This document shows positions 2,571-22,045 of a stretch of DNA of 22,160 nt, piece by piece; within the stretch, counting starts at the first letter, position 1, and every line of letters starts with the position of its first letter. Origin of the DNA: Paramacrobiotus metropolitanus (Eukaryota > Tardigrada > Eutardigrada > Parachela > Macrobiotidae); contig NW_026570660.1 in the NCBI RefSeq assembly GCF_019649055.1, forward strand, positions 1-22,160. Reading direction: 5' to 3'. A program made the position numbers and the translations under genes. The notes below the pieces were generated by a model that did not search any database, had not been told where the DNA came from, and saw nothing but the letters and a program-made list of their open reading frames with translations.

Positions 2571-3796
2571 TTACCAAAACCGCTCACTATCAGGATGAAT
2601 AAGGAGGTAATCCGAGATGGGCAGGGTTTCCCGATCCGGCACCATCGCCTCGGCGCTCTTCTCCAAATCCGGCAAACCCACCTGTCGCGCCATCTGCACA
2701 TAGTACATGGCATTCTCCGGCCGGACATTCTCCACCAGGACCTCTTCACACGCCGCCCGCAAACCGTCCATACCGTACCGTTGAGCCGCCAAACACAATT
2801 CCTCCACACGGTCTTCCGTGGTCGGCCGCTCTCGGGCGTAAGCGTAGCGGAGCATCATCTCCAGCAGCTCTCCGTCAATATCCGGCAGCTTACACGCCCC
2901 CGTCATCTTCACGGATTCATCGTGCCCGAACAGAAGGTCGAAGACAGGGAAGGCGGTGGAAAGGATGGCGCGGTGAACCGGGAAGACACGGTTATCGCTG
3001 GAGATGAGGGTGGCGTCTGCGAGTGGCCCGAGCGACAGGAGAGGCAGAAGATCAGCGCGCGGTGTGGCGATTTCGAACGTCAAGATCACCACGACCATCT
3101 GTCCTTTGCGGAGGGCCGTGCCTTTGGGCTCGACGAGGGTGGAAAGGTCATCGTTGCGTTGCTCGGAAGACACGTCCGTCCATCCCTTCGGGCCGATTTT
3201 CACGGTGGAATTAGCGCCGCCTTTCGCTCTGCAAAGGTCAATATTTAGTTGACAGTAAACACATACTTGGGGCAGCGAATACTGAGCGAAATCTTCCATT
3301 TTCATCTGCCTTTATGATAATTAAAAATAAGACTATTTTATTATATTGATATATTCAAGGTGAGCGCTAACTTAGTTCCCGGTAAACACGATGGCTAAAT
3401 GCTGTAAGTCACGCTTACTTCTCGTTCGACTCATTTTACAACTGTATTACAAACTAGCGAACCATCAGTACAAACAGTATTGTTTATCACGTACCGCACA
3501 GTGCAATGGATAAGCAGGCTCCTGGCCGAAACAATCTGCTTGTGATCGCTCTGGGGAAAGACCCGCGCCGTCACTTTCTTGGCCCACCGCTGCATCCACA
3601 TGGAGGACGGGATCTCCGGATAGTCCCGTTGGCGGTCCACGCGAAATTCGGCCACGAACCTACTCTCGCTGGGTTTCTTCAGGGCGTTCCCTTGTAGTAG
3701 AGGAGATTGGATGAAGTGTTCCGTGGGGATGGTGTACTGCAGGCTCCACGATAGTCGACGCTGCTGAGAGGGGAACGGCTCGCGAAAAGCGCTCAT
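2571..3796 (-). CDS. BTB/POZ protein with divergent MATH-like N-terminus
   Basis: Two-exon gene. Exon 1 runs 3796-3495 and ends in a GTACGT donor. Exon 2 runs from about 3309 to the TAA at 2571-2573. The intron is 185 bp. Two acceptors lie 4 nt apart (AAAG|GCAG|ATG); only the upstream one keeps the frame, giving 346 residues. The C-terminal half is a clear BTB/POZ fold followed by its helical extension: ADATLISSDNRVFPVHRAIL, then FPVFDLLFG, LLEMMLRYAYARERP, ELCLAAQRYGMDGLRAACEE and ENAMYYVQMARQ. The layout and length (SPOP is about 370 residues) match MATH-BTB substrate adaptors of Cullin-3 ubiquitin ligases. Residues 1 to about 190 sit where MATH would be but match it only weakly, so substrate specificity is unknown. 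The start is the first ATG of the exon 1 frame; no TATA box is evident. The intron and MATH call are less certain than the BTB call. Confidence 0.85.
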
Positions 3797-7589: not shown

Positions 7590-7802
7590 ATGGTTTCCCT
7601 GGGAAGATTGCTCGTTGTACTGACCCTGTGCTTGGCCATCTTTGCCGGTTTTATCGAAGCCGGAAAGAGCAACAAAAACAAGCCGCTGCCGGATCCAAAG
7701 GACCCCAAGAACAAACCGCTACCTCCCTTGCCTGGAGACAAGCCGCTCCCGAAACCACCGACCATCACCGAACAAGCCAGGAGGCAGGGCCAACATCCTT
7801 AA
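7590..7802 (+). CDS. secreted Lys/Pro-rich 70-aa peptide, copy 2
   Basis: This is the plus-strand paralogue of 5213-5425: same length, same 24-residue signal peptide, and one residue changed (Thr for Ser). Of the 12 nucleotide differences between the coding regions, 11 are silent (for example TCT/TCC, TTG/CTG three times, CGA/AGA, AAG/AAA, CTG/CTA). The flanking promoters have drifted much further. That pattern shows the protein sequence is under strong purifying selection and that both copies are probably functional. No intron is seen, and no AATAAA lies close downstream. The two genes diverge from a 2.2-kb interval, each with its own TATA box. Confidence 0.87.
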   Translation: MVSLGRLLVVLTLCLAIFAGFIEAGKSNKNKPLPDPKDPKNKPLPPLPGDKPLPKPPTITEQARRQGQHP

Positions 7803-11375: not shown

Positions 11376-11383
11376 TATAAAAG
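11376..11383 (+). promoter_or_regulatory. TATA box of small cysteine-peptide gene A
   Basis: TATAAAAG lies 116 nt upstream of the ATG at 11492, the same spacing as for its paralogues B (131) and C (118). Confidence 0.7.
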
Positions 11384-11491
11384 AAGAATGCGGTGCTGTT
11401 CGTATGGCGCATATCACCAAAATCAATTAAATCTAGGCATAATAGTTTATAAGTTTTGCCGAACCCAGCCGCGTATCTTGCTCTACCAAAC

Positions 11492-11959
11492 ATGAATGTT
11501 CTACGATCCGTCTGGATAATGTTGATCTTGATAGTCGCGAGTTTGGTAAGATGAAATCTAACATTTATTCTCAATTACCACCATATATCGATTCCACTAT
11601 TCGTTTATACGAGTACGCATTTGGAACAACCCAGAGCTTAGAGTGGATGACCTTGTGCTGATGTTGCAAAGTTTGATGGTTACAAAGCGAATCCATATCA
11701 GTCTTATAGCATATATATAGAGCTGTATACTGTACTTAATATTTTCATCAAATGGTATAGGTTTTTGACATAAATTATTTTGAGGTTGACCAGAAATTAC
11801 AGTGAAGAAATGGTACAGTACTAATCGTAAATAAATACTTTCATTTTGCAGCTGGTTGGACCTTCTGTATGTAGGATTTGCAACCCGGAAAACAGGCGAT
11901 TGTGTCACGTTCACGAGGAAATCGTTAGAGATCCATCGAATGACCAGGGATCACTGTGA
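11492..11959 (+). CDS. small secreted cysteine peptide, family member A
   Basis: Two-exon gene. Exon 1 (11492-11545) is exactly 18 codons, MNVLRSVWIMLILIVASL, followed by a GTAAGA donor. The 306-bp intron ends in a branch-like TACTAAT and CATTTTGCAG. Exon 2 (11852-11959) adds 35 residues and a stop, phase 0 to phase 0, for a total of 53 residues. The mature part begins near LVGPS and carries CRIC, then a third Cys after seven residues (NPENRRLC), then an acidic tail with EEIVRDPS. Exon 1 aligns with genes B (15117) and C (18705): all are 18 codons with M-x(6)-W at the same position and a hydrophobic run. Three cysteines is odd for a monomer; a disulfide-linked dimer is possible. No known family is recognised, and no AATAAA is seen close downstream. 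Confidence 0.72.
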
Positions 11960-12626
11960 ACGAAGCCGGCTATCCGATGGGCATCAAGGAAAACCTCAAC
12001 AAGAGTTTTTTTAAAGAATTGGACAAAAGGCTGATCATATAGCGTTTCTGTACATGCTGTAGACATGAGGGTCGTACTTCACTTGTAGCCTGTTGCTTAA
12101 ATCTCCGAGATTACGTGTACTAATTGTCGTCAGTAACCGGTGTCGGCCTTAGTGAATCACTGCCCCGTAGAAGGTAATATAAAATTTGCTCGGACATAAA
12201 TTTCCAAGTTGCTCTGCATTTCATAACGGTGAATGCTGTCGTTTTGTGAAAATGTACTCGGTTACGTAAGAAAACAGTGCTACTAGATCATCTTGACTAC
12301 AATGCTTAGCAATAACGCTTCGCAACGGGTTGTTCCTGCGTAGGGATCTAAGATTCTCCAAGACAGCTGCAACCCGAGAACACCAGGTCAGATTTAGTTT
12401 AGATGACGTTGATATCGTTTTTTATGTACGAAGGATCGAATTAAAACCATTGAAGTAGTCAGCTAGTTTACAAAAAGCTGACATGTACAGTCACAAACTC
12501 ATTTCCGGTTTAAAACATAATTATACATATGTACCGTGTCAAACACATTAACGACAATCGGCGCTGTAAAGAAGGGAAATCAACTGCCCGTTTTACAACG
12601 ACAGATACATATAAGCCCATAGTTTT
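11960..12626. other. intergenic, no gene
   Basis: A short protein-like frame follows the stop of gene A (VNEAGYPMGIKENLNK, from about 11956), but it lacks a start, and no splice sites connect it. Otherwise no gene or repeat was seen. Confidence 0.35.
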
Positions 12627-13573
12627 TTACTCTTTTATTAGTGATTCGACGGCCTGTACGGTTTCCGCGTAGACCTTGCCCAAAGTGCCTTCATATTTAA
12701 CCAGAAATCCAAGGAAATCTTGAGCGGCTCGGACGACTTCGGTATGATGCTGTGTGCTAGTGATGAGAACGGAGTCAGCAGCAAATTGGTATGCCGCCCC
12801 GATTTCCTTAGCAGCATGTGGCTTAAAATAGTCAACGACCTCGCTGACGCTCTTGATCAGTGCACTGTCATCAGCGGTAGCATCATTAGCCTTACCACTA
12901 CCATTCACAAAGCCATCTATGAAAGCGATCTGCAAAAAAGCATAGTTAGTACCATAACAAACTGCATACTGTGGGTAGGGAAACGCACCACACGATGGGC
13001 TATCCGGACAGCTCTTTTGAACCACCTCCAAATTCTTCCGAAAAACCCTTTGATGCCTGTAACCAGTATCAAGTTTGTTCAAAAGAAAGCATCGAAGGTC
13101 AAGCAAATGGTTGGGGAGACCTTGTTCGGTGATCTTCGTAATCAACTCTCTGGCAATGGCCTGTGCCCCGCCGGCGTTGTCAAAGCCGTTCAGCTGCAGC
13201 TGACCTTTAGCAACACGCAGATCCGACACAATTTCCGCGCGACGACCTCGGTGGAATGTGTAAGGTCGTCGAAAGCTGACAAGGTTTGATTGGCTTGCCG
13301 AAGTAAGCTGGATGGGACGGTTTCTTGCGTGGCCTGTTGCACCTCGGCAACAGCTCGTTTGATGTATGGCTGAGTATCTGTACACCGTCATCATCACAGT
13401 GTTAAATACTGTAGAGTTAAAGACTTCAACTTATTATTGTTAATTCAAATTTTAGATTTGTTTATAAATCATAAATAATTTTAGTCCACAGAGTACGGTA
13501 CTGTACTTTGTAAGATAGAGGAGGCAGTGGAAGCCGTAACCGCACAGGCAAGAATAACTACTAAACTATTCAT
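12627..13573 (-). CDS. secreted helical two-repeat protein, exon structure uncertain
   Basis: Exon 1 (13573-13507) encodes a signal peptide (MNSLVVILACAVTASTASS), with a GTACAG donor in phase 1. Exon 2 starts at 13377 after GTGTACAG and continues in frame (NTQPYIKRAVAEVQQATQET). The last exon (12929-12627) follows TACTAAC and TTTTTTGCAG. Exon 2 has two readings. With a donor at 13205|13204 (AAG|GTCAGC) everything stays in frame and gives 180 residues. Alternatively, a CG dinucleotide insertion near 13230 shifts an older frame running on through AEIVSDLRVAKGQLQLNGFD to about 13121. The second reading makes exon 2 resemble the last exon: IK-x2-V-x-EV, then H-x-TEVV, then a helical tail, so the protein looks like two tandem amphipathic-helix repeats. 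The family is not recognised; a lipid- or surface-binding secreted protein is a guess. Confidence 0.55.
12634..12639 (-). terminator. poly(A) signal overlapping stop region
   Basis: AATAAA on the minus strand lies inside the last codons of the helical-protein gene (CTA ATA AAA GAG TAA), implying a very short 3' UTR. Confidence 0.5.
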
Positions 13574-13703
13574 GTTGAGTGAACTGGTGCACGACTGAAA
13601 CTGTAATCGAAATTTTACCAAGCAGAAGAAAAAGGATAATGTTTAAAACAAAAGCTGAGTTAATTTTGGCTCGATAACTGTTTTACTTCGCAGCTTCGTC
13701 GGC

Positions 13704-13713
13704 TTTTTATATA
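13704..13713 (-). promoter_or_regulatory. TATA box of helical-protein gene
   Basis: TATATAAAAA on the minus strand starts 140 nt upstream of the ATG at 13573. A minus-strand frame that runs across it (13643-13846) is therefore unlikely to be the real gene here. Confidence 0.65.
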
Positions 13714-13714
13714 T

Positions 13715-14662
13715 GCCGGATGACTGACGGGTTAACCGGCTATTTTGCTCCAGAAGCAGCAGAAGGGCGGAACTTATATTTTGATCCTGTTCAAGCACAT
13801 CCTCATACTCACTGCTGCGGCTCCCCAGACGGATATTCAAGCTCACTCACAATACAATTGTATCTCTAACCAGTGATAAAGTCTTTGTAAAATCCTCAGT
13901 GCTATCAATCACGTCGAGAAATGTGTTGGTTTTAGAGCAGTTATTTCGTGAATACGGAAGTCTTATCAGTGTGTTTGTCTTCAAGTGCCTGTTTACTGTT
14001 TTCTCAAATGCAAGGTTAACCGCTACTCTAAATGCATTACTATTTGTTTTCGTGACAAACTCCATTATACGCATAACATAGTTATGTAGTATTTCTTCTA
14101 ATTCTCCATTTCCTCTCTGATGTTTTTGTGTCTTGCAAACGGTTAAGCATTACATAAAACGTGATGAAACAAAATGCAAAATACGGCTGAATAATACAAT
14201 ACGCCGGTGTAAACAACGGTACTTGTGATGTGGTACTCCAATTTTTGCTATTTACAATATATTAATTGTTGACCAGTAAGTAAGTAAACGACTGCGCACG
14301 TCTTATGTTTTCTTCATTTTAGCGGTGTTTGGATGGTATTCTACGAGTACGTTCGTTTTGTCTGCCTATCAATTTCCACAGCTAATGTCAGGTAAGGGTT
14401 TACACCAAATAAAAATCTTAATCATGGTGTTTTGATGAACGAATTTTCCGTGGTACTCTGTACAATGCAGAGCAAACATGTACTCATCTAATTTCGAGCA
14501 TCGGTCTAATGTCATATTTTTAAAAATCGCATAGTTAAAATAATATTATCGGAGTTAAGCGGAATCGGTTTAATTTGTTATTGTTTTTTTCTACATAAAT
14601 TTTGAGAACCGCTTAAGCTTTTGGTTCGTAAATTTGATATCCGTTTAACGATATATCATAAT
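13715..14662. other. intergenic, no gene
   Basis: Frames at 13643-13846 and 13847-14074 (-) show no start context, splice partners or family resemblance. A GTAAGG donor-like site at about 14391 follows a short hydrophobic frame from 14335 (MVFYEYVRFVCLS), but no TATA box or second exon was found. Confidence 0.35.
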
Positions 14663-14668
14663 TTTATT
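14663..14668 (-). terminator. poly(A) signal of gene B
   Basis: AATAAA on the minus strand lies about 105 nt after the stop codon of small cysteine-peptide gene B. Confidence 0.6.
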
Positions 14669-14771
14669 TCCATATTTCAGCTCAATTTGTATTGGCCAAT
14701 TGTGAGCAATAAGGATAAAAAACACACGTGAAAACGTTTCAGCTGCATCCATATACTTAATACTGCGCGCG

Positions 14772-15117
14772 CTATTTGTTTTGTTGCTCCGCGGTGCCGT
14801 CCGAGTCGACGACTTCGGATGGACTCTTACAATGGACTATTCCACAATTTTTTGGGGCCACGCCACCTTCAACGCCGGATATCGCAACAAGCTGAAAATG
14901 TTTTTTGTCAGTCTAGTTAGTTACTACAAGAGAGCTCTTATTATAATCTAGGAATACGTACTACGATCAGATTCAGTAAATGGATGAAAGGAAAGAAAAT
15001 TATGCTCCAAAATTCCTAATTAATTTTTGTCTTTATTGTCGTATGACAGACATTTACACTTACCGCAGCAACAAGCGCTACCAACAACAGCATCCAAAGT
15101 GATTTCAGCACCTGCAT
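14772..15117 (-). CDS. small secreted cysteine peptide, family member B
   Basis: Two-exon gene. Exon 1 (15117-15064) is 18 codons, MQVLKSLWMLLLVALVAA, followed by a consensus GTAAGTG donor. The 172-bp intron ends in CATTTTCAG. Exon 2 (14891-14772) adds 39 residues in phase 0 and ends in TAG. The mature peptide contains SGVEGGVAPKNC, a second Cys four residues on (CGIVHC), then an acidic tail (SEVVDSDGTAEQQNK). Total 57 residues. Signal exon, splice phase, SGV(E/D)G and the DGTAE end are all shared with gene C. Two cysteines could form one disulfide loop. No known family matches. A TATA box (15248) and a poly(A) signal (14668) complete the gene model. Confidence 0.85.
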
Positions 15118-15239
15118 TGTGGCTAACAAAACTGTATACCCAGAACGTTCAAATAATTGAAAACAGCTTAGTAGAACAATCTTTGACATAAATTCAACGT
15201 AACCGATAAGACAATTTCTTAAATATGCACGCAAACGAT

Positions 15240-15248
15240 CTTTATATA
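15240..15248 (-). promoter_or_regulatory. TATA box of gene B
   Basis: TATATAAAG on the minus strand starts 131 nt upstream of the ATG at 15117. A plus-strand TATAAAAG at 15314-15321 points the other way, 66 bp further on, making a possible divergent promoter pair. Confidence 0.7.
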
Positions 15249-15313
15249 CTTTATGAGAAATTTTTTTGCTGCAGTGAACGTTGTTATGCGGAGTTGTTAT
15301 GCATGTGATGTCA

Positions 15314-15321
15314 TATAAAAG
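15314..15321 (+). promoter_or_regulatory. orphan TATA box, divergent from gene B
   Basis: TATAAAAG is identical to the TATA box of gene A. The first ATG downstream (15399, MFVLFFEFH then stop) is hydrophobic but closes after nine codons, so this may be the promoter of a lost family member. Confidence 0.35.
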
Positions 15322-15977
15322 AAAAACATGGTGATTTGTGAGGTATTTCAGTGAACATTCAAAAGTTATACAAAATCAATTCGCGGATATATTTAGCCAT
15401 GTTTGTTCTATTTTTTGAGTTTCATTAATGATTCATAGGTACAAAATGTCAACAGCCGATACGTAGTACGTAAAAGTGTTTACTGCTGTTTAGTGGTTAG
15501 TAATCACTGATTACTATCATTAATAATAATACGTTCGTTCCTTCCAGCAGTAGTGAAGGCATACATCGGTTCTGAAAATTTATGTAGAACGAAAACAATA
15601 ACAAATTAAACGCTTCCGCAAAACGCCAATAATATTTTTGTAATTAAGCAGTCTATGAAAATATGACATTACACTAGACCGATTTGGACGTCAAGATCAT
15701 AAGCTCCGCTGTTTGGAATATTTTGCCGTGTACATAATGAATGAGTACTAGTAGTGTTCAGAGTATACAGTACAGGCAATTCTGTGTCCATTTACGACAA
15801 GAGTTCATTAAACTATAACTAAAGTTTTTGTTGCGATGCATTTTTTCTAGACCAAAGAAAATTAATACGTGAGATAATTGTTTTCATAATCAATATACTT
15901 ATTAACCAGCCTGGGTATGGTATTATCCTTCCCATATATCTGTAATTCACAGTCATTTTTGAGCAAGAATATTTTAA
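15322..15977. other. AT-rich, no gene
   Basis: Apart from the orphan leader at 15399 no coding, RNA or repeat feature was recognised. Confidence 0.4.
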
Positions 15978-16621
15978 GGAAGTGGCCCGGTACATGGTAC
16001 CAGATTCGTGTACATGCACGAATCTTTCTCTTTCGCGCCCTCCCAAACCCTTTTTCTCTTGTTTTATGACAATCTGTAGTCACATGATTTGTACACAGGC
16101 CTGAAAACCGTTTGCGCGCAACATTCGCGAGTTATGACTGTGAAAGAATTCCCAAAAGTTTAATACATTCAGGTGTATCAAAAGTCTCATTATGGACCGA
16201 TCTCTTTCAGATTTTGCACGTAAATGCATAACCACGAAGAACGTTTTACACCGATCCACTGTTCTAGCATGTTTTCAAATTTTAAAATGAATTTCAAAAA
16301 TTTTAAAATTCATTTTAAAATTTGAAAAAATCGTGGAAGTCTGGATCGGTGTAAAAACGATCTTCATGGCCATGTGCATTTACATGCAAAAATTTGAAGG
16401 AGATCGGTCTATAATGAGACGTTTGGTACACCGGAAAGCATTTAAACTTTTGGGAATTTTCTACCATAACTCGCGAACCTGATGTTGCGCGCGCAAACGG
16501 TTTTCAAGCATAAATCATTTGACTACAGAATGTTTTAAAACAAGAGAAAAAAGGGTTTGGGAGTGCGAAAGTGAAAAATTTTGTGCATGTATACGAATTT
16601 GTACCATGTACCGCCACTTCC
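15978..16621. mobile_element. 644-bp foldback (giant hairpin) element
   Basis: The two halves are near mirror images. The left arm, from GGAAGTGG at 15978, and the right arm, ending CCACTTCC at 16621, share in mirrored order: GGTACATGGTAC, a CTCCCAAACCC block, TCTCTTGTTTTA, AAAACCGTTTGCGCGC, TCGCGAGTTATG, TTCCCAAAAGTTT, TCTCATTAT, CCGATCT and ACACCGATCC. At the centre, 16272-16294 and 16306-16328 pair perfectly over 23 bp around an 11-nt loop. Arms of about 300 bp are roughly 80% alike by eye. No coding frame is credible. A clear target duplication was not found. If transcribed, it would fold into long double-stranded RNA. Confidence 0.85.
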
Positions 16622-17085
16622 CTAATTCGACAGGATACGGAAAGCATTAAAAGGGCTCTTTGCAAGCCGTGAAACATAGAAATGTACTACGATCACGACA
16701 AATGCACTCTAAAACGCGGGATGCCGCATTATTCCTGTAGAATGCATCCATTTCCGCACCTTTATTGCTTTTTGCGCAAACAAGTTCAGTAACGCATTTT
16801 AGATACATCGATCACGCATTGCACAGACAACAGTGGTCAATTAACTGGGACAGTGTAGCCGGGTTGGCTAATGTGCCCATTGAATTGTATTCCGTGCAGT
16901 TAATTATGCATTCGGTGCATTATCGAACTCCGGATGGCAGTGATCTTGGTAAAATGGTATTATACCCCACGATTACTATTACGTAACCGATGATGTCATT
17001 CGACTCAGTTTCTCTTTCTGAGTTGACTGGTCATAGCCTTTTGGGAGGAAAAGGTCATTTAAAGGTCACAGAGCACAATGCATTT

Positions 17086-17290
17086 CTATAGTGTTTTACC
17101 GTCACTCACGTCTAATTTGTTTGTTTTTACACAGTATCAAACTTTTCTCGACCTTTTCACAACAAACTCAAGGTCACCTAAAGGAAAAGTGTATAGAAAA
17201 CAATACATTTATATAGTGTACATTTATACCTTTTTATCACTGGCGTGTGATTTGTTTGTTTTTACACAGTATCAAACTTTTCTCGACGTT
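17086..17290. repeat. two direct copies of a ~75-bp unit
   Basis: ATTTGTTTGTTTTTACACAG and the following TATCAAACTTTTCTCGAC occur at about 17115-17152 and 17249-17286, with looser similarity just before (TATAGTGT...). This lies inside the TIR element. Confidence 0.75.
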
Positions 17291-17305
17291 TTACAAAAAA
17301 TTTAA

Positions 17306-17720
17306 GAACTATATCATGCAAAATATTTTAAGAACCCCAAGAAACCTAAGAAACCTAAGAATCCTATGAAACCTAAGAAACCTAAGAAATCTAAGAATCC
17401 TAAGAAACCAAAGAATCCTAAGAAACATAAGAAACCTAAGAAACCTAAGAAAATTATATCATGCAAAATATTTTAAGAACCCCAAAAATCCTAAGAAGCC
17501 TAAGAAACCTAAGAAACCTAAGAAACCTAAAAAAATTATATCATGCAAAATAGTTTAAGAATCCTAAGAAACCTAAGGAACCTAAGAAATCTAAGAATCC
17601 TAAGAATCCTAAGAAAGCTAAGAATCCTAAGAATCCTAAGAATCCTAAGAATCCTAAGAAACCTAAGAAACCTAAGAATCCTAAGAAACCTAAGAAACCA
17701 AAGAGATCTAAGAAACCTAC
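17306..17720. repeat. degenerate 9-bp minisatellite (CCTAAGAAA/T)n
   Basis: A long run of CCTAAGAAA and CCTAAGAAT units. It is organised in higher-order blocks, each opened by (A)TATATCATGCAAAATA-TTTAAGAA at about 17310, 17455 and 17536. It lies within the TIR element and gives artefactual LGFLGFLGFL and NLRNLRILR frames. Confidence 0.9.
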
Positions 17721-17722
17721 GT

Positions 17723-17940
17723 AAGAAACCACTGTTAAAATAAAACAGTAACATTATTGACCTAAGAAAGAAACCCTAAGAACCTAAGAAACCACCGCTG
17801 ATATAAAACAGTAACCTTATTGACCTAAGAAAGAAACCCCAAGAACCTAAGAAACCACCGCTAATATAAAACAGTAACCTGATTGACCTAGGAAAGAAAC
17901 CCTGAGAACCTGAGAAACCAACTGTAATGTAGAACGGTAA
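17723..17940. repeat. 63-bp tandem repeat, about 3.5 copies
   Basis: AAGAAACC starts at 17723, 17786 and 17849, with a diverged copy (GAGAAACC) at 17912: a constant 63-bp step. Each unit contains ATAAAACAGTAAC, ATTGACCTA and GAAAGAAACCC. It follows directly on the 9-bp array and reuses its words. Confidence 0.85.
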
Positions 17941-18071
17941 CTTGAATGACTTGATCACGTGATCCTGGATCCACGTGAACTATGCATTGTTCGACTCGCA
18001 GTCTTTTTCTGAACAAAATAACTATAGGATGTTCACTTCTGCGAAGAAAACACCAGAAATTTAATAACAAA

Positions 18072-18074
<3 letters not shown>

Positions 18075-18102
<28 letters not shown>
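18075..18102. repeat. (TA)n microsatellite
   Basis: About 14 TA dinucleotides in a row, just inside the right TIR of the element. Confidence 0.9.
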
Positions 18103-18417
18103 GCATTTTTGACCGTGACCTTTAGATGACCTTTTCCTCCCTTAAGGTCATCGCCATTCGACTCAGAAAAAAATACTGAGTCGAATGGAGCCATCGGTTA
18201 CGTCATAGCAATCGTGGGGTATATTACCATTATACCGTGATCTTGATGGTGCATTCAGATCAGCTGATCCATTCTTCGGGACGAAGAATCTAAGCGGAGG
18301 GTAATGTTACGATCGTGGAGGTTTACGATCATGGACACTGGACAGCGTGGATTGCATGGCTGTATGTATCTTTATGGTGATATTGAAGCAAGTGATATAA
18401 AATAGAAGCAAATGATA

Positions 18418-18423
18418 TTTATT
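18418..18423 (-). terminator. poly(A) signal of gene C
   Basis: AATAAA on the minus strand begins 12 nt after the stop codon of gene C. Confidence 0.6.
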
Positions 18424-18434
18424 TCTTTGCCGCA

Positions 18435-18705
18435 TTATTCGGCTGTGCCATCCGGATCGGCAACGGAGTCCTCCAGTTCCGGTACACAGCCGACCGGCGC
18501 GGGACAGCGGCGCTTCTTTCCGTCCACGCCGGACATTGCGCTGAACTACAATGGAATCATCAATAAACCAAGGGAATCAACATTGATTTACCAGAATCAG
18601 TGTATTAATCAGATATTTTCGACAAATATCATGAGCATCATGATGGCGTACCGTAGCGAGCACTGCAACCAACAGCACCATCCAAAGGAGCCTCACTGTT
18701 TGCAT
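18435..18705 (-). CDS. small secreted cysteine peptide, family member C
   Basis: Two-exon gene. Exon 1 (18705-18652) is 18 codons, MQTVRLLWMVLLVAVLAT, followed by a GTACGCC donor. The 106-bp intron ends in TTCCATTGTAG. Exon 2 (18545-18435) adds 36 residues in phase 0 and ends in TAA. Total 54 residues. The mature part has SGVDGKKRRC, a second Cys five residues on (CPAPVGC), then the acidic tail ELEDSVADPDGTAE. It matches gene B in the signal exon, in SGV(D/E)G, in the two-Cys loop and in the DGTAE end. Its mature N-terminus is far more basic (KKRR) than that of B. A longer plus-strand frame (18412-18798) is only its antisense shadow. Function unknown; a secreted effector, immune or signalling peptide is plausible. 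Confidence 0.85.
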
Positions 18706-18814
18706 GGTTTCTTTCTTTTTAAGTTAAGGAATATACAGGCAAAGAAATCTCTTATGCGCAGAACATTTATTTGCGGTAAACGGTTTGTGAAACGCTGATA
18801 TACATAAACGAGCG

Positions 18815-18823
18815 TTTTATATA
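18815..18823 (-). promoter_or_regulatory. TATA box of gene C
   Basis: TATATAAAA on the minus strand starts 118 nt upstream of the ATG at 18705. Confidence 0.7.
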
Positions 18824-20051: not shown

Positions 20052-20623
20052 ATGAGGAATTCCTTACTGTCCGCTTGCCTTACACTTTTGGTAATCGAGC
20101 AGATAACTGGTAAGCAATTCTCGTTCCCGTACCTGGTTCATTTTATTTACATTTAAGTTATGTAACTCAATTCAGTTTAGCTAACCTGCTGTTAAAATTG
20201 CACTTAAATATAAATGCTAACGCATTTAAAGATTTTAAGTACTTATTTGTTGCTTGAATTTTTTTTATTGGACAGAATCTATCCTATACATAGTCATTAT
20301 TAATAATTATCTGTACAGTAATTGCCGTTTTCAACATGTAGATTTTTTTTAACATGTTGAATATGGTTTTCGGGGTTAAGCGTAGGAAGCTTAATCTGAT
20401 TTCAATAATTGCAGGCAGCCAACGAACGCCCCTCACCGCCGCCGGTAACGAGCGAGCCTTGGCGCAGTCCGATGGCACGTGCGGATGTCCCTGGATTGAA
20501 TATCTCTGCGAGCGCCGCTGCGTGGAGAAGGGATACACGCGCGGTGGTAAATGTCATCGATATGTTAAATTATCCTGTGGATGCTACGGTGAACGAGGCC
20601 GGCTACGGTACAATGTATGCTGA
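20052..20623 (+). CDS. CS-alpha-beta defensin-like secreted peptide
   Basis: Two-exon gene for an 88-residue preprotein. Exon 1 (20052-20109) encodes the signal peptide MRNSLLSACLTLLVIEQIT with a GTAAGC donor in phase 1. The 305-bp intron ends in ATAATTGCAG. Exon 2 starts at 20415. After a linker of about 22 residues comes a domain with eight cysteines: C-x-C, x6, C-x3-C, x10, C, x7, C-x-C, x11, C. The C-x3-C helix pair, the GGKC turn and the C-x-C strand form the hallmark order of invertebrate defensins and related CS-alpha-beta peptides; the leading C-G-C and the final Cys are additions. An extracellular antimicrobial role is the simplest reading, though this fold also serves in ion-channel-active and signalling peptides. 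A diverged relative lies at 21601. Confidence 0.87.
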
Positions 20624-21600: not shown

Positions 21601-22045
21601 ATGGCGAAATTAATATTACTGGGTGTTTTGGGTTTATGTCTCTTGTTAAACCACGTTGCGAGTAAGTCTAATAAGGCAGCAAAGTACGGATACGAATCAC
21701 ACAATGCATATAGTCACGCTCCGCTACCACTCAATATAATTAATTACTCAAAATTAATTAATTGAACAGTTCGGTCTTCTGTGGCACATGTGTTTGTAAA
21801 GCAAAAGCATACAGAGTTTTAGGAATGTTGATGATTATTAACTGCGCTACTTTCCTGAAGGTCAAGCAGGAAGAGGAAATGGGACGCGACCGGTCATTCC
21901 GCGACCGGTTATCTCGTGTGGATGCCCAAAAACTGAATTGTGCAACGAAACCTGCAAAAAACAGGATAACAAAAGGGACGTTGCCGTGGAAAATTGTGTG
22001 TGCCAGGATCAGCGGCTCAAATGGTCCTCCATCCAAAAGTGTTAA
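21601..22045 (+). CDS. diverged CS-alpha-beta-like cysteine peptide
   Basis: Two-exon gene for about 81 residues. Exon 1 (21601-21661) encodes the signal peptide MAKLILLGVLGLCLLLNHVA with a consensus GTAAGT donor in phase 1, the same phase as the gene at 20052. Exon 2 starts at about 21861 (TTTCCTGAAG|GTCAAG). Further AG sites at 21866 and 21869 would also keep the frame, so the exact junction is open. The mature part begins SQAGRGNG, passes an Arg/Pro stretch (TRPVIPRPVIS), then CGCP, C-x3-C, C-x-C and a last Cys: seven cysteines. CGCP-x-(T/I)-E and the C-x3-C...C-x-C...C order match the first gene, but the GGKC cysteine and turn are missing. Probably an ancient tandem duplicate. The odd cysteine number suggests a changed fold or a dimer. 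Confidence 0.77.

What the first reader, a model, noticed from the sequence alone, without database searches (positions are those of the whole stretch)
11376..18823. A new family of intron-split micro-secreted cysteine peptides (three members)
Genes A (11492-11959 +), B (15117-14772 -) and C (18705-18435 -) each have an 18-codon signal exon with Trp at residue 8, a phase-0 GT-AG intron, a 35-39-residue mature exon with a close cysteine pair and an acidic tail, and a TATA box 116-131 bp upstream. B and C share SGV(E/D)G and DGTAE. Conservation of exon length, phase and promoter across three copies in two orientations is very hard to get by chance. Proteins of 53-57 residues in two exons are below most gene-finder limits, so the family is probably unannotated. 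I recognise no known family.
Basis: partly seen in the sequence, partly recalled or inferred. Interest (0 to 1): 0.88.

Follow-up and report, generated by a model that had tools for sequence, protein, structure and literature searches.

The report
Tardigrade family of tiny secreted peptides
A water bear's genome carries a family of at least seven tiny two-exon genes for probably secreted peptides with one cysteine loop each, some of them beside a defensin gene, so they may belong to the still poorly known tardigrade defence or signalling toolkit.

Summary
The window is a whole 22,160-bp contig of the tardigrade Paramacrobiotus metropolitanus. Genes A, B and C each have an 18-codon first exon with Trp8, a phase-0 GT-AG intron and a 35-39-codon second exon. 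All three recur with the same splice sites in a diverged copy of the block on contig C143. A genome-wide pattern led to four more members on C162: ten copies, seven distinct genes. Between the copies of A, B and C, exon gaps are multiples of three; pooled dN/dS is 0.28 (Fisher p 1e-4), though C alone shows no constraint. The peptides share one cysteine loop (CX4-8C), different in all seven genes, identical in the three copied pairs, and usually an acidic tail. No relative was found in Pfam, NCBIfam or PDB; the protein set searched looks poor in animals, so absence elsewhere is weakly tested. A defensin-like gene lies 1.3 kb from C. Best reading: a lineage-specific family of secreted one-disulfide loop peptides. 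Real genes about 0.97, secreted about 0.9; defence the likeliest role (about 0.4), ligand or pheromone next (about 0.3). Transcription, annotation status and presence in other tardigrades were not testable.

The parts
11376..11381 (+). TATA box of gene A (-116)
   Evidence: kept in the C143 copy
11492..11545 (+). gene A exon 1, 18 codons, MNVLRSVWIMLILIVASL
   Evidence: C143 copy at 105268-105321
11546..11851 (+). gene A intron, phase 0, GTAAGA...TTGCAG
11852..11959 (+). gene A exon 2, 35 codons and stop, loop CNPENRRLC, acidic tail
   Evidence: C143 copy at 105599-105706
15241..15248 (-). TATA box of gene B (-131 to -124)
15064..15117 (-). gene B exon 1, MQVLKSLWMLLLVALVAA
   Evidence: C143 copy at 108818-108871
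14892..15063 (-). gene B intron, phase 0, GTAAGT...TTTCAG
14772..14891 (-). gene B exon 2, 39 codons and stop, loop CGIVHC
   Evidence: C143 copy at 108520-108636
18816..18823 (-). TATA box of gene C (-118 to -111)
18652..18705 (-). gene C exon 1, MQTVRLLWMVLLVAVLAT
   Evidence: C143 copy at 110184-110237
18546..18651 (-). gene C intron, phase 0, GTACGC...TTGTAG
18435..18545 (-). gene C exon 2, 36 codons and stop, loop CPAPVGC, acidic tail DGTAE
   Evidence: C143 copy at 109965-110078

Best explanation
A, B and C are protein-coding genes of Paramacrobiotus metropolitanus and belong to one family of at least seven distinct genes (ten copies on contigs C440, C143 and C162). Each makes a precursor of 49-57 residues. 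The signal peptide (inferred) is coded by exon 1 and the first seven to nine codons of exon 2 and is removed by signal peptidase. That leaves a peptide of about 23-30 residues with one loop of 4-8 residues closed by a disulfide (inferred from the lone cysteine pair) and a C-terminal tail that is acidic in six of the seven genes. The loop differs in every gene and is presumably the recognising part. Most likely role: secreted effectors of host defence, working in the manner of other lineage-specific clusters of small defence peptides. Shown: gene structure, family, conservation between copies. Inferred: transcription, splicing, secretion, disulfide, function. Sub-odds: real genes 0.97, one family 0.93, secreted 0.9, defence 0.4; the confidence below is for the statement with its functional step.
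For: Same 18-codon exon 1, Trp8, phase-0 GT-AG intron, TATA-like box at -116 to -132 and CX4-8C loop in 10 of 10 copies. Copies of A, B and C kept on C143 with gaps only in threes in exons and pooled dN/dS 0.28, Fisher p 1e-4. Exon-1 pattern made from six copies: all 8 zero-mismatch hits in 170 Mb are members, two of them new. A matrix trained on A/E/F/H ranks B, C and G above all 1,475 other open ATG stretches of the three regions, and one trained on B/C ranks the rest likewise. Tail pattern: A, its copy, E and F only, control 0. Loops differ between genes and are identical in 3 of 3 copied pairs. For defence: a defensin-like gene 1.3 kb from C (PDB 2ru0, E 2.9e-7) and other small secreted peptide genes on the same contig.
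Against: No transcript or peptide was seen. C alone gives dN/dS 0.88 (3 silent, 8 replacement changes). Aligned intron columns of A and B are nearly as well kept as exons (91 and 88 against 91-94%). Against defence: net charges near zero or negative are unlike most membrane-killing peptides; the four neighbour peptides queried were not found in the 30 kb around the C162 members; the defensin match is below Pfam's cut-offs.
Confidence: 0.45

Rival explanations
1. The same secreted one-loop peptides are intercellular ligands: pheromones, seminal or egg-surface signals, or peptide hormones, each loop read by its own receptor.
For: Each loop is identical between diverged copies while no two of the seven genes share a loop, as expected of distinct ligands. 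The species has males and females (PMC11191345, passages). Peptides are near neutral.
Against: No processing pattern of a hormone precursor is shared: basic pairs stand before the loop in C and G, inside the loop in A and in the tail of H, and none in B, E, F; no C-terminal amidation signal (read from the sequences). No Pfam hormone family matches.
Confidence: 0.3
2. They are gland, cuticle, eggshell or feeding secretions, for instance loop-type protease inhibitors, with no role in defence or signalling.
For: Secreted, small, proline-rich loops; neighbours include proline-rich secreted peptides.
Against: No match to any inhibitor or structural family; nothing else speaks for it directly.
Confidence: 0.2
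3. The pieces are chance open frames that look like exons.
For: Exons are short, no transcript was seen, and with one mismatch allowed the first pattern gave as many hits as its reversed control (39 and 39).
Against: Intact frames and splice sites in two diverged copies; the eight zero-mismatch hits are all members; four members on a third contig with the same layout.
Confidence: 0.02

Closest known systems
Bomanins of Drosophila (PMC4411088, passages)
   Same: Lineage-specific cluster of genes for very short secreted peptides with close cysteines; defined from sequence comparison before any biochemical activity was known.
   Different: Bomanins share a conserved 16-residue motif with CXXC. 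Here the loop is CX4-8C and variable; only A and its copy have a CXXC, whose first cysteine may leave with the signal peptide. No member matches a Pfam family above cut-off.
CS-alpha-beta defensins, such as the gene at 20052-20623
   Same: Small secreted cysteine peptides with a signal exon, in the same contig.
   Different: Six cysteines and a phase-1 intron in the defensin-like gene; two cysteines (three in A) and a phase-0 intron here.
One-disulfide loop peptides (vasopressin/oxytocin type, CCAP, thanatin, bactenecin; recalled)
   Same: A single short loop closed by one disulfide.
   Different: No sequence similarity found; loop length varies within this family; no amidation signal.

Membership tests
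Family proposed here | 18-codon first exon with Trp8, phase-0 GT-AG intron, CX4-8C loop in exon 2 | tested here: met
   10 of 10 copies; the definition was drawn from these copies
Bomanin | conserved 16-residue motif holding CXXC | tested here: not met
   CXXC in 2 of 10 copies (A and its C143 copy), motif not conserved; no Pfam match above cut-off
Bomanin | induced by Toll signalling | not testable with these tools
   no expression data
CS-alpha-beta defensin | six or more cysteines in the defensin spacing | tested here: not met
   two cysteines after the first exon, three in A and its copy; no Pfam defensin match
Neuropeptide or peptide hormone precursor | shared basic cleavage sites and, often, an amidation signal | tested here: not met
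   basic pairs not in a shared place and absent in B, E, F; no amidation signal (sequences, read by eye)
Secreted peptide | N-terminal signal peptide | tested here: inconclusive
   basic n-region and hydrophobic core in 10 of 10 (by eye); no signal-peptide program available

The most novel reading that the evidence does not exclude
A tardigrade-specific class of one-disulfide, variable-loop secreted effectors, partly kept beside defensin-like genes, forms part of the unknown effector arm of tardigrade immunity; the conserved signal exon and tail are a fixed carrier on which new loops evolve.
Probability: 0.3. Interest if true: 0.72.

Novelty: new variant of a known kind. Interest (0 to 1): 0.52.

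Why it matters
A survey of tardigrade immune genes found much of the canonical fly Toll pathway missing and left open whether tardigrades possess novel antimicrobial peptides (PMC7056985, passages). A well supported family of secreted micro-peptides, three of them near a defensin-like gene, gives named candidates for that. It also shows that two-exon genes of about 50 codons can be found from diverged copies of a block without transcripts.

Tried and rejected
Relatives elsewhere: profiles of six and of ten members found nothing at E 10 in the large protein set. The same set gave no hit at E 1e-10 for the window's BTB protein, so it is probably poor in animals and the absence is weak evidence. 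Pfam DUF4044 and SecM_small (best E 0.0075 and 0.0087) are below cut-off (DUF4044: residues 7-21 of A, the hydrophobic stretch) and rejected. NCBIfam: best E 0.042, a bacterial hypothetical protein, rejected. PDB: two Tet4 variant chains (E 8e-5 and 2e-4) match profile positions 2-22 only, the signal region, rejected.

One-mismatch pattern hits: one search gave 31, of which one is member G; 23 of the other 30 were examined. One search gave 19, of which 7 were examined. Together 27 distinct loci. Two of 27 have an open 18-codon stretch followed by GT: C1:3195544 (score 23.5, charged core) and C18:64526 (score 28.8, upstream of what reads by eye like a LIM domain). Members scored 50.6 or more with a nearly identical matrix. 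I do not count these two; C18 stays undecided. An earlier count said that none of five has GT at codon 18; that is wrong, one has. Genome searches with single members by protein or DNA miss most paralogues, so seven genes is a lower bound. COX1 search, meant to name the species, found nothing.

In print: paper searches listed no such family (57, 58 and 79 show only the first 15 of 24, 10 of 12 and 8 of 13 papers; one found no paper with both words; one listed 12 of 74, plant papers). Supplements and gene models were not readable.
Full report
What the window is. The window is the whole of contig C440 (22,160 bp) of an assembly of 169,799,020 bp in 533 contigs. The gene-specific 19 bases of the published forward primer for ParTYO_TPS-TPP-2 (PMC8277472, passages) occur once in it and the reversed control never; the place, C84:81675, reads by eye as a trehalose-phosphate synthase. 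The published assembly of Paramacrobiotus sp. TYO, treated in later work as P. metropolitanus, is 170,483,395 bp in 684 scaffolds. I take the species as established; why 533 and not 684 contigs are held was not tested.

The three genes. All three introns are GT-AG, phase 0, after codon 18.

A natural test by a second copy. C440 aligns inside C143, both ends included and mostly collinear (one short stretch is inverted), at 72-82% identity over the blocks longer than 200 bp; some stretches, such as 15.7-18.4 kb, do not align. A, B and C each have a copy there with the same start, splice sites, phase, stop and TATA box. Exon identity is 91-94%; aligned intron columns are 91, 88 and 78% identical with 14, 9 and 5 gaps. 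By substitutions alone the exons of A and B are thus only slightly better kept than their introns; the contrast lies in gaps and in silent against replacement changes. Exon gaps are 3, 3 and 6 bases in the MAFFT alignment (a second aligner splits those of C as 5, 1 and 3). At the intron rate, 3 or fewer gaps in 486 bases has Poisson P 2e-8. dN/dS is 0.24 for A, 0.14 for B, 0.88 for C and 0.28 pooled over 162 codons, Fisher p 1e-4. C alone (3 silent, 8 replacement changes) does not show constraint. Whether C440 is a diverged haplotype left in the assembly or a duplicated block cannot be told; the published assembly had been haploid-merged (PMC8277472, passages).

More members. A degenerate 35-place DNA pattern of exon 1, made from these six copies, was run over the genome with one mismatch allowed. 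It gave 39 hits, as many as its reversed control, so one-mismatch hits are mostly background; but all 8 zero-mismatch hits were family members, two of them new, on C162, and one one-mismatch hit lay on the same contig. C162:170001-200000 then gave four members: G (+) at 173955, E (-) at 189645, H (-) at 192306 and F (-) at 194801; their peptides are. A matrix scan of the three regions (92 kb) gave ten hits above 20, all ten of them members scoring 50.6 or more and all followed by GT (nine of the ten were in the matrix). Trained on A, E, F and H with the A copy, it still put B, C and G above all 1,475 other open ATG stretches, and trained on B and C it did the same for the rest. A second pattern, drawn when all ten were known, found those ten without mismatch and no eleventh; 29 hits in all with one mismatch, 4 in its control. 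A pattern of the acidic tail, made from A, E and F, with 3 mismatches allowed found those three and the A copy, control 0. A tree has two groups, A/E/F/H/G and B/C, split with support 95/93; other forks are weaker, and the tool warned of long branches, G above all.

Anatomy. In 10 of 10 copies: 18-codon exon 1, Trp8, phase-0 GT-AG intron of 105-438 bp, a TATA-like box starting 116-132 bp before the ATG (TATTTAA in G, which has TATAAA nearer as well), and one loop CX4-8C. Loops of the seven genes: A CNPENRRLC, B CGIVHC, C CPAPVGC, E CPGDPRC, F CLPGSPRNPC, H CNPTWKPWEC, G CNPHVDVTC; all different, while the three copied pairs are identical. The stretch after the loop is acidic in A, B, C, E, F and G (-1 to -7 over their copies) and +1 in H. 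The extra cysteine of A aligns with a serine of E where the -3,-1 rule (recalled) would put signal cleavage, so mature A may also have just two cysteines; this is inference.

Setting. The contig also holds a six-cysteine peptide gene whose exon 2 matches an arthropod defensin in PDB (2ru0, E 2.9e-7), though its Pfam defensin and scorpion-toxin matches are below cut-off; a second cysteine-rich small gene without a PDB match below E 0.1; two copies of a proline-rich secreted peptide; a larger secreted protein; and a BTB gene. CS-alpha-beta sequences in tardigrades have been noted before (PMC5116183, PMC9751787, passages), so the defensin is not new as a kind. Four neighbour peptides sought in the 30 kb of C162 were not found there.

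How it may work. The simplest pathway is secretion with removal of the signal peptide only, then oxidation of the loop. A fixed carrier (signal exon, tail) with a new loop in each gene, each loop kept between copies, suggests that each peptide has its own target. I put defence first because of the neighbours and the likeness in kind to Bomanin clusters (PMC4411088, passages), at about 0.4; ligands or pheromones at about 0.3; glandular, structural or inhibitor roles at about 0.2. The near-neutral or negative charge speaks against plain membrane-killing peptides.

Known or new. None of the ten members has a Pfam or NCBIfam match above cut-off, the profile has no PDB match in its mature part, and two searches of the large protein set found nothing, a weak negative. 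Paper searches listed no such family. I call it a new variant of a known kind: lineage-specific secreted cysteine micro-peptides.

Noticed in passing
20052-20109 and 20415-20623 (+): Two-exon, phase-1 gene for a secreted six-cysteine peptide; exon 2 matches arthropod defensin 2ru0 in PDB (E 2.9e-7), below Pfam cut-offs. Its C143 copy differs by 8 replacement and 1 silent changes.
   Followed up: partly
21601-21661 and 21870-22045 (+): Second small secreted cysteine-rich peptide gene, likely two exons, kept on C143 at 69% identity; no PDB match below E 0.1.
   Followed up: partly
5425-5216 (-) and 7590-7799 (+): Two nearly identical, divergently placed single-exon genes for a lysine- and proline-rich secreted peptide, both kept on C143 (dN/dS 0.07 and 0.11).
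   Followed up: partly
1-22160: The whole contig lies within C143 as a diverged copy (72-82% identity; length): leftover haplotype or duplicated block.
   Followed up: partly
12627-13573 (-): Gene for a larger secreted protein without a Pfam family; its second exon is interrupted by a frame change in this copy while the C143 copy reads open.
   Followed up: partly
16000-16620: Long imperfect inverted repeat around a palindromic centre, looks like a fold-back mobile element (seen by eye).
   Followed up: no
17329-17941: Tandem arrays of a 9-bp unit (TAAGAAACC) and a 63-bp unit.
   Followed up: no
2571-3305 (-): BTB/POZ domain gene (Pfam E 5e-17).
   Followed up: no
L058 (C18:64476-64960), from position 51: MHTFKIMWAVLLPCCSAL followed by GT: weak possible distant relative or chance (score 28.8); no second exon was sought.
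   Followed up: no
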